A stretch of 64,000 nt of DNA from Luteitalea pratensis (GTDB taxonomy: Bacteria > Acidobacteriota > Vicinamibacteria > Vicinamibacterales > Vicinamibacteraceae): contig NZ_CP015136.1 in the NCBI RefSeq assembly GCF_001618865.1, positions 186,001 through 250,000 of the forward strand, written 5' to 3'. Shown here piece by piece: positions 53,560-60,322 of this stretch. Position numbers and translations under genes: made by a program. The notes beneath the pieces were generated by a model. That model saw nothing but the letters and a program-made list of their open reading frames with translations. It was not told the DNA's origin and did not search any database. The number at the start of each line of letters is the position of its first letter. Within the stretch, counting starts at the first letter, position 1.

Positions 53560-54000
53560 TTACTCCGACTGTTCCGGAATCGGCGGTAGACTTCTGACCT
53601 TGCCTGCGACCTTGCGGCAGGCGCCAATCAGGTCCGAGACAAGCCGGTCGTCCACGTCGAGGACGCCTTCGTACTCGGTCCGATTCCGCATGTCGTGGCA
53701 CTTTGACAGGACTCGCCAGACCTCAGGCCCCAGGCCAAGTGTGGCCGGCAGTACCTGAAAGACGATGTATCGCTTCGACGGTCGGAATCCGTGGTGGCGG
53801 AGCGCCGCCAAGCAGAGTGCGTGAGCGGCGCTGTAGGCGAGATCGAACCTGCTGTCCAACGAGTTCGCTGCGTTCTCCGCATCCTTCAACCGCGCGAGGC
53901 CCGAACGGACGAGACCGGTAAACTCCTTCGCATCGGGAGGTTCCTTTCCGAGGACGTTTCCCGGACCCGCGAGGCGCTCAAGTGGCGATGGGGAGGTCAT
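53560..54000 (-). CDS. HEPN-like protein paired with a nucleotidyltransferase
   Basis: 146 residues. A helical protein with SRFDLAYSAAHALCLAALRHHGFRPSKRYIVFQ in the middle and CHDMRNRTEYEG (about 110) where HEPN-type RNases have their R-x4-6-H active site; here it reads RN-x3-Y, so a nuclease activity is doubtful. Size, helical content and position right after a nucleotidyltransferase match the MNT/HEPN toxin-antitoxin arrangement. It overlaps the nucleotidyltransferase stop by about 23 nt. ATG 54000 is favoured by GGAGG on the neighbouring sequence being absent for ATG 54012; both are possible. Confidence 0.6.
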   Translation of the reverse strand: MTSPSPLERLAGPGNVLGKEPPDAKEFTGLVRSGLARLKDAENAANSLDSRFDLAYSAAHALCLAALRHHGFRPSKRYIVFQVLPATLGLGPEVWRVLSKCHDMRNRTEYEGVLDVDDRLVSDLIGACRKVAGKVRSLPPIPEQSE

Positions 54001-54619
54001 GTTCGGATCCAATCACCCAGAGTTTTGGCTGCTCGAGCACCCGTGTCACGAATGCGTTTTCAGTCCTGGCGCGCTTGGAAAACTCGGCGGCCGTGTACAC
54101 CGTGGGGTTGACTTTCCGACCCACGGCGCGCGTGACCCGCTCGAGGGCGCCGAAGACCTCGCCGTACGTGAGGCTGTCGCTAATGATCATCAGGTCGATG
54201 TCGCTTGCCGCTTGATCCGTCGCCTTGGCCACGGAACCGTACACGAAGGCCGTGCGAATCGCCTTCGACAACGGCTTCAGGGCCTCGCGCAGCGGCTCGG
54301 CGAGACCGACTGTCTTCAAGACGATGTTCCGCAGTTCGAAATACAGAGGTGACGTCGCGTTGGCCTGGTAGTGCTTCTGATGGCCAATCCGCCGCGCCGA
54401 GATCAGCCCGCTTCCTTCCAGCTTCGCAAGTTCGCGCTGGGCTGCGCCAGAGCCCGTGCCCGCGTCTCGAATCAGCTCCGAGGCATAGAAGCTACGCTCG
54501 GGCTGGCCGAAAAGCACACCGAGGACGCGCTGCTGTGTCTTCGTGAACAGCGCATCCGCCAGGCTCTTTCGACGGGACCGATTTGAAACGGCCTTGGCAC
54601 CCAATATGGGCACAATCAT
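53978..54619 (-). CDS. Winged-helix nucleotidyltransferase (MNT-like)
   Basis: 213 residues. The N-terminal winged helix (LFTKTQQRVLGVLFGQPERSFYASELIRDAGTGSGAAQRELAKLEGSGLI) precedes a minimal nucleotidyltransferase domain with FVYGSVAKATDQAASDIDLMII, which has the GS-x10-DxD active-site motif. Such proteins modify and silence a partner (often a HEPN toxin) by adding nucleotides. It sits between the HEPN-like gene and McrC on the same strand. The start is uncertain: ATG 54619 and ATG 54634 both lie in an operator palindrome, and the family usually begins near residue 27. Confidence 0.8.
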   Translation of the reverse strand: MIVPILGAKAVSNRSRRKSLADALFTKTQQRVLGVLFGQPERSFYASELIRDAGTGSGAAQRELAKLEGSGLISARRIGHQKHYQANATSPLYFELRNIVLKTVGLAEPLREALKPLSKAIRTAFVYGSVAKATDQAASDIDLMIISDSLTYGEVFGALERVTRAVGRKVNPTVYTAAEFSKRARTENAFVTRVLEQPKLWVIGSEHDLPIAT

Positions 54620-54635
54620 GCCCGATCTGGGCATG
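54600..54635. promoter_or_regulatory. Tandem palindromes at the NTase gene start
   Basis: CATGCCC-GATCT-GGGCATG (54617-54635) has perfect 7-bp arms, and CCCA-ATA-TGGG (54600-54610) is a second, weaker palindrome. Both sit at the 5' end of the nucleotidyltransferase gene, just after McrC's stop, and may be sites for its own winged helix. Confidence 0.6.
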
Positions 54636-54658
54636 CACGTCAAAAGGTTCGCTGCTGG

Positions 54659-55999
54659 CTATGCAGCCACGTGTCGGGCTGCGCCGATCCCCTGCTGAAC
54701 GGCCTCGATCAACGCCTTCGTGGCGGACCCGTGGATCTGCCCGGTCAACTCGGCGAGAACGTCAGGAATAGACAGGCCAAGCGCAAGAATCTCGGCCGCA
54801 GCAAGGGCCTGCGCACTGCGGACCCGAAGGCGGACGGCACGACTCGACCGACTCGAAGACGGATACACGAGAAGTGCAGCAGGGAGGGCTGGACCGCCAG
54901 CGGCGCCGTAGGCATAGGCGTAAAGAAAGCTCTGATACACGTCCGAGCTGCTAAGTTTTCGCTCGTCGTACAACTTGTATTTCGCGTCGATCGCAAGGCG
55001 GGCGGTGGTGTCAGCAGCGCTTCGTTCGACCAGGATGTCGGGGACCACGCGAGCGTAGGGCTGACCGGTGGATGCGTTCAGAATGATCGAGCGGTCCGCG
55101 CGCTGATAGTGAACGCGCATGGCCGATCCCGCGAGCAACGTGTCTACGAGGCGGAACACGAACATCTCGAATAGCCGGTTCATGTCGATCAAGAACGCGA
55201 AACAGTTCGTTTCGCCGGTGACGAGCACGTCTCTCGTACCCAACCCGTCCAGGATCAACCACGCAAGTGCGTGCGGATTCCGGTAGTGTTCGTTCAGCCG
55301 GTGGTACGTCATCCGGTTCCGGATCCCCTCCAGGTCAAGATCGTCAGGGCGGCACGCCTCCTGAAGAATCGCCAGGAGCCGCCGGACGCGTCGGCGAACC
55401 GAATCGTACGTGACGCGCGTCGCGCATCGGCTCAATGCGGCTGCCAGAAGTTGGTTCTCGGCGATGTTCTGCTCGTGCTCGTCAAACCGGCAGACGAGAC
55501 GGTCTACCTGCCCGAATCGTCGGAGCACTTGTTGATCACCGAGCAGTCGCCCTCGTAACACTGGGAGCTCGTCCTCGCGTTCGACGTAGTCGGCGAGAAG
55601 TCCACCGCGGAGGATCAGCTCCGTACCCTCCGCGAGCAGAAGCGCAATAAGGTCGAACAAGCCGGTGCCTTCGGCATGTAAACTTCTCGCGCTGGAGCTT
55701 CTGCGTAGAGAGTCGAGTCCGGTTGCAAACTCGATCATCTCGACAAGCCCGATGTTGTTGCCGGCCAGCTTGGGAACAACCCGCACCTCGAATCGTTCGA
55801 AGCGCACAATGCCGACCCACGAACGAGCCGTGACTCGCACCCCGGCGCGAAGTTCATCCACCAGCAGTCGGCCCTCTTCGCCTGACCGGAGTTCTTCCTT
55901 CAGACGCTGATCCGATGGCGTGAGTACTTCGCCGTCGATCTTCAAGGTCTCCCACTCGGCGATTTCGAAAACAGGCCGGTCACCCGACGTGTGTTTCAC
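54659..55999 (-). CDS. mcrC: McrC, nuclease subunit of a McrBC-type restriction system
   Basis: 446 residues. The N-terminal beta-domain (FEIAEWETLKI...RVTARSWVGIVRFERFEVRVVPKLAG) binds the McrB ring and the C-terminal nuclease domain has the PD-(D/E)xK pattern: VVPDILVE followed by LAIDAKYKLYDERKLSSSDVYQ. It should cut DNA carrying modified bases together with McrB. The start ATG overlaps the end of the mcrB gene by 4 nt (GTGA/ATG region), as usual for this pair. Length is somewhat longer than E. coli McrC. Confidence 0.9.
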   Translation of the reverse strand: MKHTSGDRPVFEIAEWETLKIDGEVLTPSDQRLKEELRSGEEGRLLVDELRAGVRVTARSWVGIVRFERFEVRVVPKLAGNNIGLVEMIEFATGLDSLRRSSSARSLHAEGTGLFDLIALLLAEGTELILRGGLLADYVEREDELPVLRGRLLGDQQVLRRFGQVDRLVCRFDEHEQNIAENQLLAAALSRCATRVTYDSVRRRVRRLLAILQEACRPDDLDLEGIRNRMTYHRLNEHYRNPHALAWLILDGLGTRDVLVTGETNCFAFLIDMNRLFEMFVFRLVDTLLAGSAMRVHYQRADRSIILNASTGQPYARVVPDILVERSAADTTARLAIDAKYKLYDERKLSSSDVYQSFLYAYAYGAAGGPALPAALLVYPSSSRSSRAVRLRVRSAQALAAAEILALGLSIPDVLAELTGQIHGSATKALIEAVQQGIGAARHVAA

Positions 56000-58551
56000 A
56001 CGACGCCTCCCTCGCGGCGACCGAACTCCTCTTCAAGGGCCGCCACGAGCGCGTCGGCATCTGCAAGACGTTCCCGGTCGAGCGTCTGGGCATTCTTGTC
56101 GACCAGCTTCGGACCGATGTACGACGCCAACGCAGTGTAGTCGTCGTAACAGTACTCTTGGAGTAGAGGCAGGATCTCCTGCCGAAAGCGGCGCGCGAAT
56201 TCGTCCGCATCAGTGATCGGCTCGCCGTCCTCCAGCAGGAAGGAATGGCCGATCTGCTTTTCCCTGCCTTCTGTTTTCGCGATCCGGCGATTCAACTCCT
56301 CCAGGAAGTCGTCGAGCGCCAGTGTTCCGACCTTCGACCCTCGCAGCACTTCGACATCCGGCATGAGCTCGATGAACGCGAATCGGCGCCGCAATGCAGC
56401 ATCCAGCAGCTTGATGCTCCGGTCCGCGGTGTTCATCGTGCCCAGGAGAAAGACGTTCGGAGGGATACAGAAGCTCTCCTTGCTCTGCGGAAGAGTGATC
56501 AATAGACCACGCTTGTCGATTTCGAGGAGCGTAATGAGCTCTCCCAGCACTTTTGCGACGTTGGCACGATTGATCTCGTCGACAACCAGCAGGAACCGTT
56601 TCGCCGGCTGCGCAAGGGCCGCATGGCACACGCGCTTGAACACGCCGTCTGCCAGGCGAAGCGAGAGCGAGCGGTCGCCGGTGTCGTGCGGTCGGAAGCC
56701 CTCGATGAAGTCTTCGTAGCTGTAGGAAGGATGAAAGGTCACGCGCGTGAGCGGGCTGACGACCTCGTCGTCGCCGACGAAGGGCTGGAGGTCAGGGTCT
56801 CGCTCGGCGAGGAGCGATAGGACGTGGTCAGCCTCGTCGGCGCTGAGTCCAAAGAGCGTGCCTTGGTTGCGGAACCGCATCGGCTCAGACGCTTTGAGGA
56901 TGGCATCGGCCGCCAATTCATCGTACGTGAGGCCATTCGTTACTCGGGCGAGCGGCGTAATCTCAATCGTTGGCTCCTTGCCATCATGCGCGCCGAAGCC
57001 CTTGGAGACGCGCGCCAGCGCCACGACTCGTTTCTCTGGCGTTGACTGGTAGCCGATCACCAAATCGCCCGCCTTCACATGCGGGTAGTTTCGCTGGAGC
57101 CGACCGTGCCGGTAGCTCACTCGCTTCTCTTTGAAAAGCCGGTCCCAGCTCCACTCTTTCGGGTTCGCGACGACCCACCAGACGCGACGGGAGACCTGAA
57201 CCGTAGATAGTTCGCGCTCCACCTCGAGGAACTTGTCGACGTCGGCCAGGACCGTTTGGGCGTCGGCCGTTCGACCCTCGTGCTGGAGCAGCCAGGCCAC
57301 GGCGAAACGGCGCGCATGGTACGTCTTCCCCGTCCCCGGTGGACCGTACAGGATCACCTGCCCCTTCCGTTCGAGTGCTTCAGCGATGTCCCGCGAGAGC
57401 GGATCGATAGGGGATGGCGAAACCGGGGCAGCCTTCTCACCGACGATGGTTTTGTAGAGCGCCGCAGGCACGGGTGCCACAGTCACGAGCGCCCACCGAT
57501 TCTGCGGCGGGATAGTCTTCGCGTAGGAGGTATCCCATTCGACCTGCGCCGTGTGTCGGAACTCCTCTCGGTCGGGCATCCACGTATAAGCTGGTTCGAC
57601 AACCTTGCCGATACCGAGGATCTGGGACGTGCCCTTGTTCGCAACCACGAGATCGCCTGGCTCGAGCTCGCTCAGCGTCCAGACCTCGTTGGCCTTCTTG
57701 CTGATCGTTGGTCTGTGGTTGCTGTAGGTGTCGCTGTACTCCTTCTCGAATCGCGCGCGAAACGACTCCTTGGACTCAAAGTCACGAAGGTCGCCCACCT
57801 GGTCCCATCCCACGCAGATATATCCCTCGCGCAGACAGTCGTCCCAATACTTAGCGTCCTCACCAGGCGCGATCTTGACGATGCGCCGCTGATCGCGCGG
57901 GTCAGCCCAGTGGTAGAAGAACCGTTCGACTTCAGGCGGCGACCATCCCTCGAAGTCGGACCGACTGCGCACGGCATCGAGTAGGGCGCGGTTGAGGCGT
58001 ACGACATCCAGGCCGCGGTCGTCTGCCTCTTTGCGATCCAGGGCCCGCAGGAAGTGGCGAAGGTGTTGTTTCGAAGCAATTGGCAGGACGTCGGCAGGAA
58101 AGTACACGCGAAGCGTCTTCAGCCGAAGGGCGGGTCCGCCGGACAACGGCGTGAGATCGTCAATCGTGTTCCAGTCCCCAACTTTGGCTTTCTCAAAGGC
58201 TTGGATGAATGCCTGCCGAACGGCGACCCACGCTTCCTGTTCGTCCTTGTACTCGGGGTCGCAATACCACCCCGGCTTGTCCTTGTGCTTGTAGATGATC
58301 AGCTTTCGTGCCGAGCCGCCCCGAATGCTCCCGAGATGCTGAGAGCGGTACTCCATCCACTGGCAGAACGTGTCGTCCGATGTGTCTTGACCGAGCGCAT
58401 AACGCTCCAAGGGCATCGTAGGCCACTGGTCAAGCGGAAAGCGATCCGTGACTTGTTTCCTTTCGTGTTCGCCGAGGGCGATGTGTTCATGGGCAGAGGT
58501 ACGATCGTAAGAGGCAAGTGCCGCATCGAGAGATGGACGTTCATTAGGCAC
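55996..58551 (-). CDS. mcrB: McrB-type GTPase with EVE-like domain inserted in its AAA+ module
   Basis: 851 residues. Residues 1-230 hold an N-terminal module seen in other McrB-like proteins (GGSARKLIIYKHKDKPGWY, GGPALRLKTLRVYFPADVLP). Residues 235-370 look PUA/EVE-like (KYWDDCLREGYICVGWDQVGDL, GDLVVANKGTSQILGIGKV). The AAA+ domain starts with Walker A GPPGTGKT (403-410). A second EVE-like domain (about 453-595: RRVWWVVANPKEWSW, KAGDLVIGYQSTPEKRVV) follows, then the McrB segment FHPSYSYEDFIEGFRP, Walker B LLVVDEINRAN (654-664), the GTPase signature MNTADRS (706-712) and the arginine region RRRF. It should recognise modified DNA and drive McrC. Confidence 0.9.
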   Translation of the reverse strand: MPNERPSLDAALASYDRTSAHEHIALGEHERKQVTDRFPLDQWPTMPLERYALGQDTSDDTFCQWMEYRSQHLGSIRGGSARKLIIYKHKDKPGWYCDPEYKDEQEAWVAVRQAFIQAFEKAKVGDWNTIDDLTPLSGGPALRLKTLRVYFPADVLPIASKQHLRHFLRALDRKEADDRGLDVVRLNRALLDAVRSRSDFEGWSPPEVERFFYHWADPRDQRRIVKIAPGEDAKYWDDCLREGYICVGWDQVGDLRDFESKESFRARFEKEYSDTYSNHRPTISKKANEVWTLSELEPGDLVVANKGTSQILGIGKVVEPAYTWMPDREEFRHTAQVEWDTSYAKTIPPQNRWALVTVAPVPAALYKTIVGEKAAPVSPSPIDPLSRDIAEALERKGQVILYGPPGTGKTYHARRFAVAWLLQHEGRTADAQTVLADVDKFLEVERELSTVQVSRRVWWVVANPKEWSWDRLFKEKRVSYRHGRLQRNYPHVKAGDLVIGYQSTPEKRVVALARVSKGFGAHDGKEPTIEITPLARVTNGLTYDELAADAILKASEPMRFRNQGTLFGLSADEADHVLSLLAERDPDLQPFVGDDEVVSPLTRVTFHPSYSYEDFIEGFRPHDTGDRSLSLRLADGVFKRVCHAALAQPAKRFLLVVDEINRANVAKVLGELITLLEIDKRGLLITLPQSKESFCIPPNVFLLGTMNTADRSIKLLDAALRRRFAFIELMPDVEVLRGSKVGTLALDDFLEELNRRIAKTEGREKQIGHSFLLEDGEPITDADEFARRFRQEILPLLQEYCYDDYTALASYIGPKLVDKNAQTLDRERLADADALVAALEEEFGRREGGVV

Positions 58552-58804: not shown

Positions 58805-59225
58805 GAGGAAACGTGTGGCAGAGGTACGATCCGCGGGAGAACGATCGCGATCGTTGCAGCGTCTTGGATCGCGATCTGGGTGGCCGAGGCAGCACGAGCG
58901 ATCGCGTTTGGGATAAGGAACGCGCCCCGCGTGACTTATTTGTGAAGGATCTCGACCTCGCACGTGGAAGCGAGCGCCGACCGATTCGGGAGCGCGACCG
59001 TGTCTACGAGATTGACGGTGCCGAGCCGCGCGCTGGCAACGATCGGCGCGTTTCGAGCCGTCGCCGAGAGCGACCTGCACGATATCCGGGACGATTCCCA
59101 AAACTCGCGGCGAAGCCTCAAGCACCTTGAGAAGGAAGGGCTGATTCACACGTCACCGCTCAGATCAGATGATCGCGCCGTGACGTTGACGGACCGAGCG
59201 CGTCGCCACCCGCCGCGAGCGCGAG
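58805..59225 (+). pseudogene. Decayed helix-turn-helix gene of a mobile element
   Basis: Two reading frames join to give one recognisable protein: an arginine/acid-rich start (YDPRENDRDR..., DLFVKDLDLARGSERRPIRERDRVYEIDGAEP) shifts near 59035 into RALATIGAFRAVAESDLHDI and RRSLKHLEKEGLIHTSPLRSDDRAVTLTDR. The C-terminal part is winged-helix-like. Intact versions, as far as I know, accompany conjugative or relaxase-bearing elements; I recognise the family only by this pattern. The frameshift makes the gene non-functional here. Confidence 0.55.
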
Positions 59226-59269
59226 ATGATCGAAGAGCTGGACACGGCCGGCTCTCCGCCGATGAACCG

Positions 59270-60240
59270 GGACCGAAGCGATTGTCAGAGGCGATCGACG
59301 CGTACCTGACGGCAAAACGGATCCGGTGTTCCGCTCGCACCATCGAACTCGAGGAGGAGCGGCTCAGCATCGTCGAGCAACACTTTGGCGATGTGCTGCT
59401 CTCCGCGATCACCACGACGACGATTGCCTATTTCCAGCACCTCCGTCACGATGCCGGCAGGGCGAACCGCACGATCAACATGGACGTGGGCGTGTTGTCT
59501 CGGGTGCTGACGTTCTGCGGCGGATGGCGAGCGCTCGCGGATCACGTGAAGAATCTGCCCGAGCGCCAGCGTCCGGTCGGTCGCGCGCTGACGCCAGAGG
59601 AGCGGAAGCGTCTCTTCGACGCTGCCGCATCGAATGCAGAGTGGGAGCACGTGTATTGAGCGGCCGTTGTCGGCGCCAACACGTCGATGCGACCGGTCGA
59701 GGTGAAGCACCTTCGGCGCTGCGATGTGGATCTCGTCAAGCGGCTCGTGCCCGTTCGACGCAGCAGGAACGAGACGAGCCATCGCGTCATCCCGCTGAAC
59801 GCGTCGGCCATCGAAGCGGCGGCGCGTATGTTCGAGCGCGCGGATCTCCCTGGACACACGGAGCCCGAGCACCACCTCTGGCCGTGCCAGTGGCGCCGCT
59901 ACGACGCCACCAACCCGATGTTGAAGTGGGACACAGCTCGGCGCTGCGCGACGCCGCGGGCCTGCCAGGCCTCCGGTTCCACGATCTGCGCCACACCGTC
60001 ATCACCGAGCTGGCCGAGATGGGCGTGGCGGACCACGTGCTCGAGTCAACCAGCGGTCATCTGTCGCGCCGGATGCTCGAGCACTACTCGCAGATCCGCA
60101 TCGACGGAAACGGCAGGCGCTCGATGCCCTCGATGCCGCCCGGCGCTCGACAGCGCATAAGGGCGATGGCAATGGGGATGGCGCAGACCAGACGGAGATC
60201 CCGGCGATCGCGGAGGTCGGCGACGACCTCACGTCACAGT
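59270..60240 (+). pseudogene. Decayed tyrosine-recombinase integrase
   Basis: The core-binding domain (LSEAIDAYLTAKRIRCSARTIELEEERL...QHFGDVLLSAITTTTIAYFQ) runs to an in-frame TGA at 59657. Translation resumes in the same frame with the Arg-I motif TSMRPVEVKHLRRCDVD, shifts frame near 59937 to LRFHDLRHTVITELAEMG (HxxR) and TSGHLSRRMLEHYSQI (His and catalytic Tyr), then shifts again near 60108. One stop and two frameshifts make it inactive. It points at the tRNA-Ser fragment about 40 bp downstream. Confidence 0.8.
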
Positions 60241-60278
60241 CACGTCAGAGGTTGGTTTTGCGCGGATTCCACTTGCAC

Positions 60279-60322
60279 GGAGAGATGGCCGAGAGGCTGA
60301 AGGCGCACGCTTGGAAAGCGTG
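60279..60322 (+). tRNA. tRNA-Ser(GGA) 5' fragment
   Basis: GGAGAGATGGCCGAGAGG starts a near-exact 5' half of a bacterial tRNA-Ser(GGA): acceptor strand, D arm, and the anticodon arm with stem CACGC/GCGTG (60306-60322) around loop TTGGAAA (anticodon GGA at 60313-60315). The expected 3' acceptor strand TCTCTCC and a matching T-stem are missing, although GGGTTCG occurs near 60361. It is therefore a fragment, not a working tRNA, and probably a remnant of an integration site. Confidence 0.75.

What the first reader, a model, noticed from the sequence alone, without database searches (positions are those of the whole stretch)
55996..58551. McrB GTPase with an EVE-like domain between Walker A and Walker B, plus a second PUA/EVE-like domain
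Walker A (403-410) and Walker B (654-664) of this McrB are about 245 residues apart, much farther than usual. The space holds a compact domain (about 453-595) with EVE-like features (RRVWWVVANPKEW, KAGDLVIGYQ). Another PUA/EVE-like segment (about 235-370) precedes the AAA+ domain. EVE domains read modified bases. McrB proteins with N-terminal EVE or YTH readers are described; I cannot confirm that an insertion inside the AAA+ core is. Two readers in one subunit might check two modifications or link recognition to GTP turnover.
Basis: partly seen in the sequence, partly recalled or inferred. Interest (0 to 1): 0.78.

Follow-up and report, generated by a model that had tools for sequence, protein, structure and literature searches.

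The report
DNA-mark reader built into restriction motor
A bacterium carries a DNA-restriction motor protein with one domain of a kind that recognises chemically marked bases in front of the motor and a second one built into the motor domain itself; the enzyme family and the habit of inserting domains are known, but this precise layout gives a clean handle on how recognition is linked to the motor.

Summary
The gene lies on the minus strand (55996-58551, 851 aa), is an NxxD-type McrB with mcrC overlapping downstream, and has a real EVE domain (Pfam E 5e-11; EVE structures match the model, Z up to 17) between Walker A and Walker B. A second EVE/YTH-type barrel sits at 222-374, and residues 8-219 match the N-terminal part of the anti-phage protein PD-T4-1. 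The inserted EVE lies between helix alpha1 and strand beta2 of the AAA+ core. Relatives about 50% identical elsewhere, one in the same order, lack exactly this module; on a GTPase tree its presence changed at least 4 times by well-supported branches. In a survey of seven phyla, 29 of 106 placed McrB-type motors had a large insert between Walker A and B: 6 at this site (4 EVE), 23 at a second site before Walker B (6 EVE-like by weak matches). Bell et al. 2024 already state, in one sentence, that McrB GTPase domains often hold inserted specificity domains. So: a new variant of a known kind, probably modification-dependent restriction with one reader fixed to the motor at both ends. Coupling to GTP hydrolysis, or a need for two marks, is untested.

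The parts
55996..58551 (-). mcrB-like gene, 851 aa, GTG start; domain order: PD-T4-1-like N module, EVE/YTH-type domain 1, AAA+ GTPase interrupted by EVE domain 2
57886..58551 (-). N-terminal all-helical module (residues 1-222), related to the N-terminal part of anti-phage protein PD-T4-1
   Evidence: PADLOC PDLC04021 E 1.8e-20, residues 8-219, model positions 10-217 of 383; helices in the model; plasmid tblastn hits annotated 'DUF3883 domain-containing protein' in 4 Salmonella records, 25.7% identity
57430..57888 (-). EVE/YTH-type barrel 1 (residues 222-374), N-terminal of the motor
   Evidence: fold match PH1033 Z 10.8, VcaM4I Z 10.2, YTH about 9; PADLOC PDC-S02 E 1.1e-14; below the Pfam EVE cut-off
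57322..57345 (-). Walker A GPPGTGKT (residues 403-410)
56761..57189 (-). Inserted EVE domain 2 (about residues 455-597), between helix alpha1 and strand beta2 of the AAA+ core
   Evidence: Pfam EVE E 5.3e-11; EVE structures Z 13-17 on model residues 451-597; absent as a block in insert-free relatives
56566..56592 (-). Walker B (residues 654-662, D658 E659)
56422..56433 (-). NxxD signature motif NTAD (residues 707-710)
   Evidence: sequence; N707 and D710 invariant in the 40-row alignment
54659..55999 (-). mcrC (446 aa), overlaps the end of mcrB by 4 bases
   Evidence: PF10117 E 1.9e-47; overlap read

Best explanation
This is a modification-dependent (type IV) McrBC restriction operon whose McrB has two EVE/YTH-type base readers: one N-terminal, next to a PD-T4-1-like helical module and joined to the motor by a flexible linker, and one inserted between helix alpha1 and strand beta2 of the AAA+ GTPase. 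Shown by computation: the domains, their order, the insertion point, the McrC partner, and the repeated presence and absence of the module. Inferred: the readers bind DNA carrying a modified base (probably modified cytosine for the EVE domains) by flipping it out; McrB forms a GTP-driven hexamer; McrC cuts. Also inferred, and least certain: because the inserted reader is held at both ends, right after helix alpha1 that follows the P-loop, it holds DNA in a fixed place on the ring and can pass binding to the motor more directly than the N-terminal reader on its linker. The result would be firmer capture of marked DNA, or triggering of GTP hydrolysis by it.
For: Domain and fold matches. The motor matches McrB structures best (T. 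gammatolerans 6ut5 Z 28.8, 43% identity over 287 residues; E. coli 6ut6 Z 23.3). NxxD and Walker motifs are intact. McrC was found in 19 of 20 loci with the inserted EVE. The inserted EVE is as conserved as the N-terminal one among 12 two-EVE proteins, Bacillota left out (53% mean pairwise identity each; GTPase 59-62%, N module 40%, bridging helices 25%), which speaks for a working domain. Linker 373-379 has pLDDT under 50, whereas the stretches on both sides of the insert are modelled at block means of 72-95, lowest at the two junctions. VcaM4I's EVE domain flips 5mC/5hmC into a pocket (PMC7897488, abstract and passages), and T. gammatolerans McrB's YTH domain targets 6mA DNA (PMC7680126 passage).
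Against: No binding or restriction data. pTM 0.52 means that the domain arrangement in the model is not reliable, and no hexamer was modelled. Pocket residues of VcaM4I (P24, W82, Y130) could not be mapped onto the insert, so the target base is unknown. Niu et al. [quoted passage not shown] coli McrBC in vitro (passage), which argues against tight coupling in general. The module's coming and going suggests that the motor works without it in relatives.
Confidence: 0.68

Rival explanations
1. The inserted EVE is a second, independent reader with no special link to the motor: insertion there is only a tolerated place, and either reader alone suffices to load DNA.
For: The module comes and goes (at least 4 changes forced by starred branches, 7 on the best tree), while relatives lacking it are otherwise alike. 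Inserts of several kinds occur at two sites. Some proteins have only one of the two EVE domains.
Against: Two separate insertion sites, both in loops that lead into core strands of the GTPase, are used again and again although simple N-terminal fusions also exist.
Confidence: 0.4
2. The inserted EVE-fold domain has become a structural or oligomer-contact element and no longer reads bases.
For: Canonical EVE pocket positions could not be mapped; the Pfam match covers positions 2-124 of 145. EVE domains can serve other roles: the McrB-family protein PcdA acts in cell division (PMC10602043, passages).
Against: Conservation equals that of the N-terminal EVE-type domain. Aromatic and polar positions (W458, W469, N488, Y501, F567) are kept in at least 16 of 18 inserts.
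Confidence: 0.15
3. The system targets RNA, as proposed for the CoCoNuT branch.
For: EVE/YTH domains also bind RNA; some CoCoNuTs carry YTH-like domains (PMC11090510, passages).
Against: Signature motif is NxxD, not NxD; the longest modelled helix is about 21 residues, so no long coiled coil; McrC matches the ordinary McrBC family.
Confidence: 0.08

Closest known systems
EVE-McrB fusions and McrB GTPase-domain insertions (Bell et al. 2020 BMC Biol PMC7641849; Bell et al. 2024 eLife PMC11090510)
   Same: McrB with EVE-family readers; the 2024 paper states that GTPase domains frequently contain insertions likely encoding specificity domains (section 6 read)
   Different: The passages and sections I read do not name EVE as the insert, nor give insertion points between Walker A and B. 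The 2020 legend of Fig. 7 says that EVE can occur in either of two positions 'but not both'; the figure itself is not held, so which class this means is unknown to me
PcdA of Staphylococcus aureus (PMC10602043, passages)
   Same: McrB-family protein with two EVE domains
   Different: Both EVE domains are N-terminal and in tandem, Walker A is degenerate, and the role is cell division
T. gammatolerans McrB (YTH-McrB; structures 6ut3-6ut7)
   Same: Closest solved motor (Z 28.8, 43% identity); an EVE/YTH-superfamily reader before the motor
   Different: Walker A lysine 221 to Walker B aspartate 356 is 135 residues (numbers) against 249 here (K409 to D658)
VcaM4I (EVE-HNH endonuclease, 6yex)
   Same: EVE reader of 5mC/5hmC; fold match to both barrels (Z 13.2 and 10.2)
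   Different: Reader fused to an HNH nuclease, no motor
PD-T4-1 (anti-phage defence protein)
   Same: About 210 N-terminal residues are related (E 1.8e-20)
   Different: A table lists PD-T4-1 under PD-(D/E)XK nucleases (PMC10952713 passage); only model positions 10-217 of 383 match here
RuvBL1/RuvBL2 (recalled, no call)
   Same: AAA+ motors with a nucleic-acid-binding domain inserted between Walker A and Walker B
   Different: Inserted domain is an OB fold; ATPase; eukaryotic complexes

Membership tests
McrB (NxxD branch) | AAA+ GTPase core with Walker A, Walker B and NxxD | tested here: met
   GPPGTGKT 403-410, D658 E659, NTAD 707-710; best fold matches are McrB structures
McrB (NxxD branch) | McrC encoded next to it | tested here: met
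   PF10117 E 1.9e-47 in the gene that overlaps mcrB by 4 bases
McrB (NxxD branch) | GTP-specific hydrolysis in a hexamer, stimulated by McrC | not testable with these tools
   No assay. Y411 sits where T. gammatolerans has W223, which stacks on guanine (passage): suggestive only
EVE domain (inserted, 455-597) | Pfam EVE profile above its curated cut-off | tested here: met
   43.2 bits against 23
EVE domain (inserted, 455-597) | EVE fold | tested here: met
   1zce Z 17.3, 2.7 A over 135; 2eve Z 15.8, 2.4 A over 127
EVE domain (inserted, 455-597) | Modified-base pocket | tested here: inconclusive
   Several aromatic and polar columns conserved, but VcaM4I pocket residues not mapped; alignment to the genome's own lone EVE protein is good only over the first half
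EVE domain (N-terminal, 222-374) | Pfam EVE profile above its curated cut-off | tested here: not met
   13.4 bits against 23
EVE/YTH superfamily (N-terminal, 222-374) | EVE/YTH-type barrel fold | tested here: met
   PH1033 Z 10.8, 2.3 A over 112; YTHDF2 Z 9.3, 2.9 A over 117
CoCoNuT | NxD signature motif | tested here: not met
   NTAD, an NxxD motif
PD-T4-1 | Whole protein (N module plus the rest of the 383-position model) | tested here: not met
   Only model positions 10-217 of 383 match; the rest of the protein is EVE-type and AAA+ domains
Type IV (modification-dependent) restriction | Cuts DNA only if it is modified | not testable with these tools
   No assay

The most novel reading that the evidence does not exclude
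A two-key, mechanically gated restriction motor: the EVE built into the AAA+ core senses one base mark and directly sets the ring's GTP hydrolysis, while the N-terminal module and EVE-type domain check a second mark or a phage feature, so that McrC cuts only when both are met. The same solution, a reader inside the motor plus one in front, arose at a second insertion site in other McrB proteins (EVE-like domains both N-terminal and before Walker B in L177 and L178, weak matches).
Probability: 0.17. Interest if true: 0.75.

Novelty: new variant of a known kind. Interest (0 to 1): 0.5.

Why it matters
How McrB's reader domains talk to its GTP motor, and by what path DNA moves, is open: Niu et al. 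2020 place the N-terminal readers of T. gammatolerans McrB at the outside edges of the ring, find the pore plugged by McrC, and say that the means of DNA translocation is yet to be elucidated (passages). A reader held at both ends inside the motor fixes where DNA sits, and relatives with and without it (for example this protein and L084, same order, 53-62% identical in the shared parts) give natural controls. The survey also turns a one-sentence remark in the literature into two defined insertion points that can be modelled and tested.

Tried and rejected
Rejected: sequencing or frame artefact (an EVE between both Walker motifs in 19 further loci; a 20th, L042, is cut before Walker A). Rejected: insert as the usual McrB helix-2 hairpin; a hairpin is still present after the insert (strands 617-623 and 629-635 in the model). 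Rejected: filing the whole as CoCoNuT or as PD-T4-1 (membership table). Not settled: whether the divergent Bacillota inserts (L012, L014: 17-18% identical in the insert, against 34-35% over the whole protein) are an independent capture. On the EVE tree they lie on a very long branch, but all 21 inserts still fall on one side of the 8 N-terminal EVE domains (100/99). That tree has three long end branches (L015, L108, L113), L113's insert sits next to the N-terminal group (90/94), and its bootstrap had not settled, so one origin is neither shown nor excluded. My script first put L149 at site 1; the printed sequence and a better motif rule put it at site 2. The count of 107 held one gene twice (L151 and L157), hence 106. 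A scan of viral contigs gave one relative, without the insert (L081); plasmids gave 151 records, none covering 80% of the protein. A PDB profile search with the N-terminal EVE-type domain gave only chance-level hits (E 0.35 and above). N module: the fold comparison did not cover it, so its fold is untested. Literature: searched for McrB or McrBC with EVE and insertion wording, another the preprint text; supplements and figures are not held, so an explicit listing there cannot be excluded. One search was a badly framed search and gave nothing.
Full report
What was checked. The gene is on the minus strand, 55996-58551. It overlaps mcrC by 4 bases (54659-55999, PF10117 E 1.9e-47). Walker A is at 403-410, Walker B at 654-662 and the signature motif NTAD (NxxD) at 707-710.

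The insert is an EVE domain. Pfam EVE matches 457-558 with 43.2 bits against a cut-off of 23. In the full-length AlphaFold2 model (40-row alignment, mean pLDDT 89.1, pTM 0.52) residues 457-584 form a barrel. VIA-align places EVE structures on it: 1zce Z 17.3, 2ar1 17.1, 2eve 15.8, THYN1 with 5mC DNA 15.4, VcaM4I 13.2. A profile of 17 inserts finds the chain 2gbs by sequence alone (E 3.3e-5). The motor itself matches T. gammatolerans McrB best (6ut5, Z 28.8, 43% identity).

Where it is inserted. The model gives helix alpha1 at 409-424, two further helices at 428-436 and 438-448, the EVE barrel, then strand beta2 at 601-605 and a hairpin at 617-635. Insert-free relatives, many of them actinobacterial, keep the N module, the first EVE-type domain and the motor, some also part of the bridging helices, but lack the block of about 145 residues. 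One such relative, L084, is in the same order and 53% (residues 6-449) and 62% (601-842) identical.

The front of the protein. Residues 222-374 form an EVE/YTH-type barrel (mean pLDDT 92.0 for residues 1-378; PH1033 Z 10.8, VcaM4I Z 10.2, YTH domains about 9), although Pfam's EVE cut-off is not met (13.4 bits against 23). Residues 8-219 match the N-terminal part of PD-T4-1 (E 1.8e-20). The same match was found in all 5 relatives tested (E 1.5e-15 to 5.7e-30), and 4 Salmonella plasmid records with proteins annotated 'DUF3883 domain-containing' carry a related N module (25.7% identity). One paper's table lists PD-T4-1 under PD-(D/E)XK nucleases (PMC10952713, passage). So this McrB may hold three recognition modules, not two; that the N module recognises anything is inference.

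Presence and absence. On a tree of the motor alone (39 rows, insert columns left out) the insert's presence needs 7 changes on the best tree, and 4 are forced by well-supported branches; shuffled labels need about 13, so it is also inherited in part. Many inner branches are weak (12 of 36 starred), and recombination could mimic changes. The 21 inserted EVE domains fall on one side of a branch against 8 N-terminal EVE domains of other McrB proteins (100/99), with the Bacillota inserts very divergent, L113's insert next to the N-terminal group, and bootstrap values that had not settled. A one-time capture with losses, or several captures, both remain possible. McrC was found in 19 of 20 insert-bearing loci; in L113 none was found in the 3.6 kb held.

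Survey. A profile of the motor was run over genomes of Chloroflexota, Bacillota, Bacteroidota, the phylum of L015 (Obscuribacterales, called Cyanobacteriota here), Actinomycetota and the archaeal phylum of L075, and P0001 itself over the window's own phylum, which I call Acidobacteriota because a near named relative, L003, is a Vicinamibacteria genome. Seed genomes' hits, the viral locus L081, the duplicate L107 and non-survey loci were left out beforehand. Of 142 open-frame matches in 139 loci, 107 could be placed (Walker A, beta2 and Walker B all found), 106 of them distinct genes; 24 had no Walker pair and 11 no beta2 motif. Of the 106, 29 had a large insert between Walker A and B; the other 77 had spacings of 74 to 156 residues. 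Six inserts are at the alpha1-beta2 site and 23 between helix alpha2 and the Walker B strand. Of the 6, 4 match the EVE profile (L082, L083, L113, L131) and 2 do not (L160, L175). Of the 23, 6 match the profile of the N-terminal EVE-type domain at E 1e-3 or better (L163, L177, L178, L181, L231, L233; 8e-8 to 7e-4) and 17 do not. In the archaeal set 8 of 9 placed had a site-2 insert, in Actinomycetota 0 of 11 had any. L075, found and therefore left out of the counts, carries the N-terminal EVE-type domain at site 2. One search searched with the whole protein and gave loci for the best matches only, so that set is slightly selected.

How it probably works. Established for relatives: EVE of VcaM4I flips 5mC/5hmC, YTH of T. 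gammatolerans McrB targets 6mA, McrB is a GTP-hydrolysing hexamer whose pore McrC enters and whose activity it stimulates. Inferred here: type IV restriction of modified DNA by this McrBC. The N-terminal readers hang on a low-confidence linker (373-379), while the inserted EVE is joined on both sides to modelled motor elements. From general AAA+ topology (recalled), the alpha1-beta2 and alpha2-beta3 loops lie on the same edge of the core sheet, away from the nucleotide; two recurring insertion points on one edge would fit a common docking face for readers. This was not modelled in the hexamer.

Novelty. Bell et al. [quoted passage not shown] My literature searches and the passages and sections read showed no statement that EVE is inserted between Walker A and B, nor of the two insertion points; supplements and figures were not available. 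PcdA shows that two EVE domains in one McrB-family protein is known. Hence 'new variant of a known kind'.

Noticed in passing
53560-54643 (minus strand): The two genes after mcrC match the candidate defence system PDC-M05: 53978-54643 is PDC-M05A (E 3e-83, with a nucleotidyltransferase-type domain) and 53560-54012 is PDC-M05B (E 7e-58). So mcrBC may sit in a small defence island. No relative of this pair was found by phmmer in the loci held.
   Followed up: partly
58964-60300 (plus strand): Remains of a phage-type integrase upstream of mcrB: the C-terminal catalytic part (PF00589 E 3e-7 in 59326-60300) and, by eye only, an N-terminal-looking part in 58964-59659 lie in different frames.
   Followed up: no
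L177, L178: Proteins with an EVE-like domain before the motor and another at the second insertion site, just before Walker B: the same two-reader plan by another insertion point (weak profile matches).
   Followed up: partly
L160, L175: Inserts at the alpha1-beta2 site that do not match the EVE profile; they resemble each other by eye. A different module may use the same place.
   Followed up: no
L226-L233: In the archaeal phylum of L075, 8 of 9 placed McrB motors carry a large insert just before Walker B.
   Followed up: no
L206 (phage NatCom_35866, PV036449.1): A phage gene annotated 'hypothetical protein' encodes a McrB-type motor with an EVE domain (E 1.5e-21) in front of it, not inserted.
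   Followed up: partly
L101, L103: McrB proteins of the window's phylum with both EVE-type domains in tandem before an uninterrupted motor, the same two domain types as here but in the usual place.
   Followed up: yes
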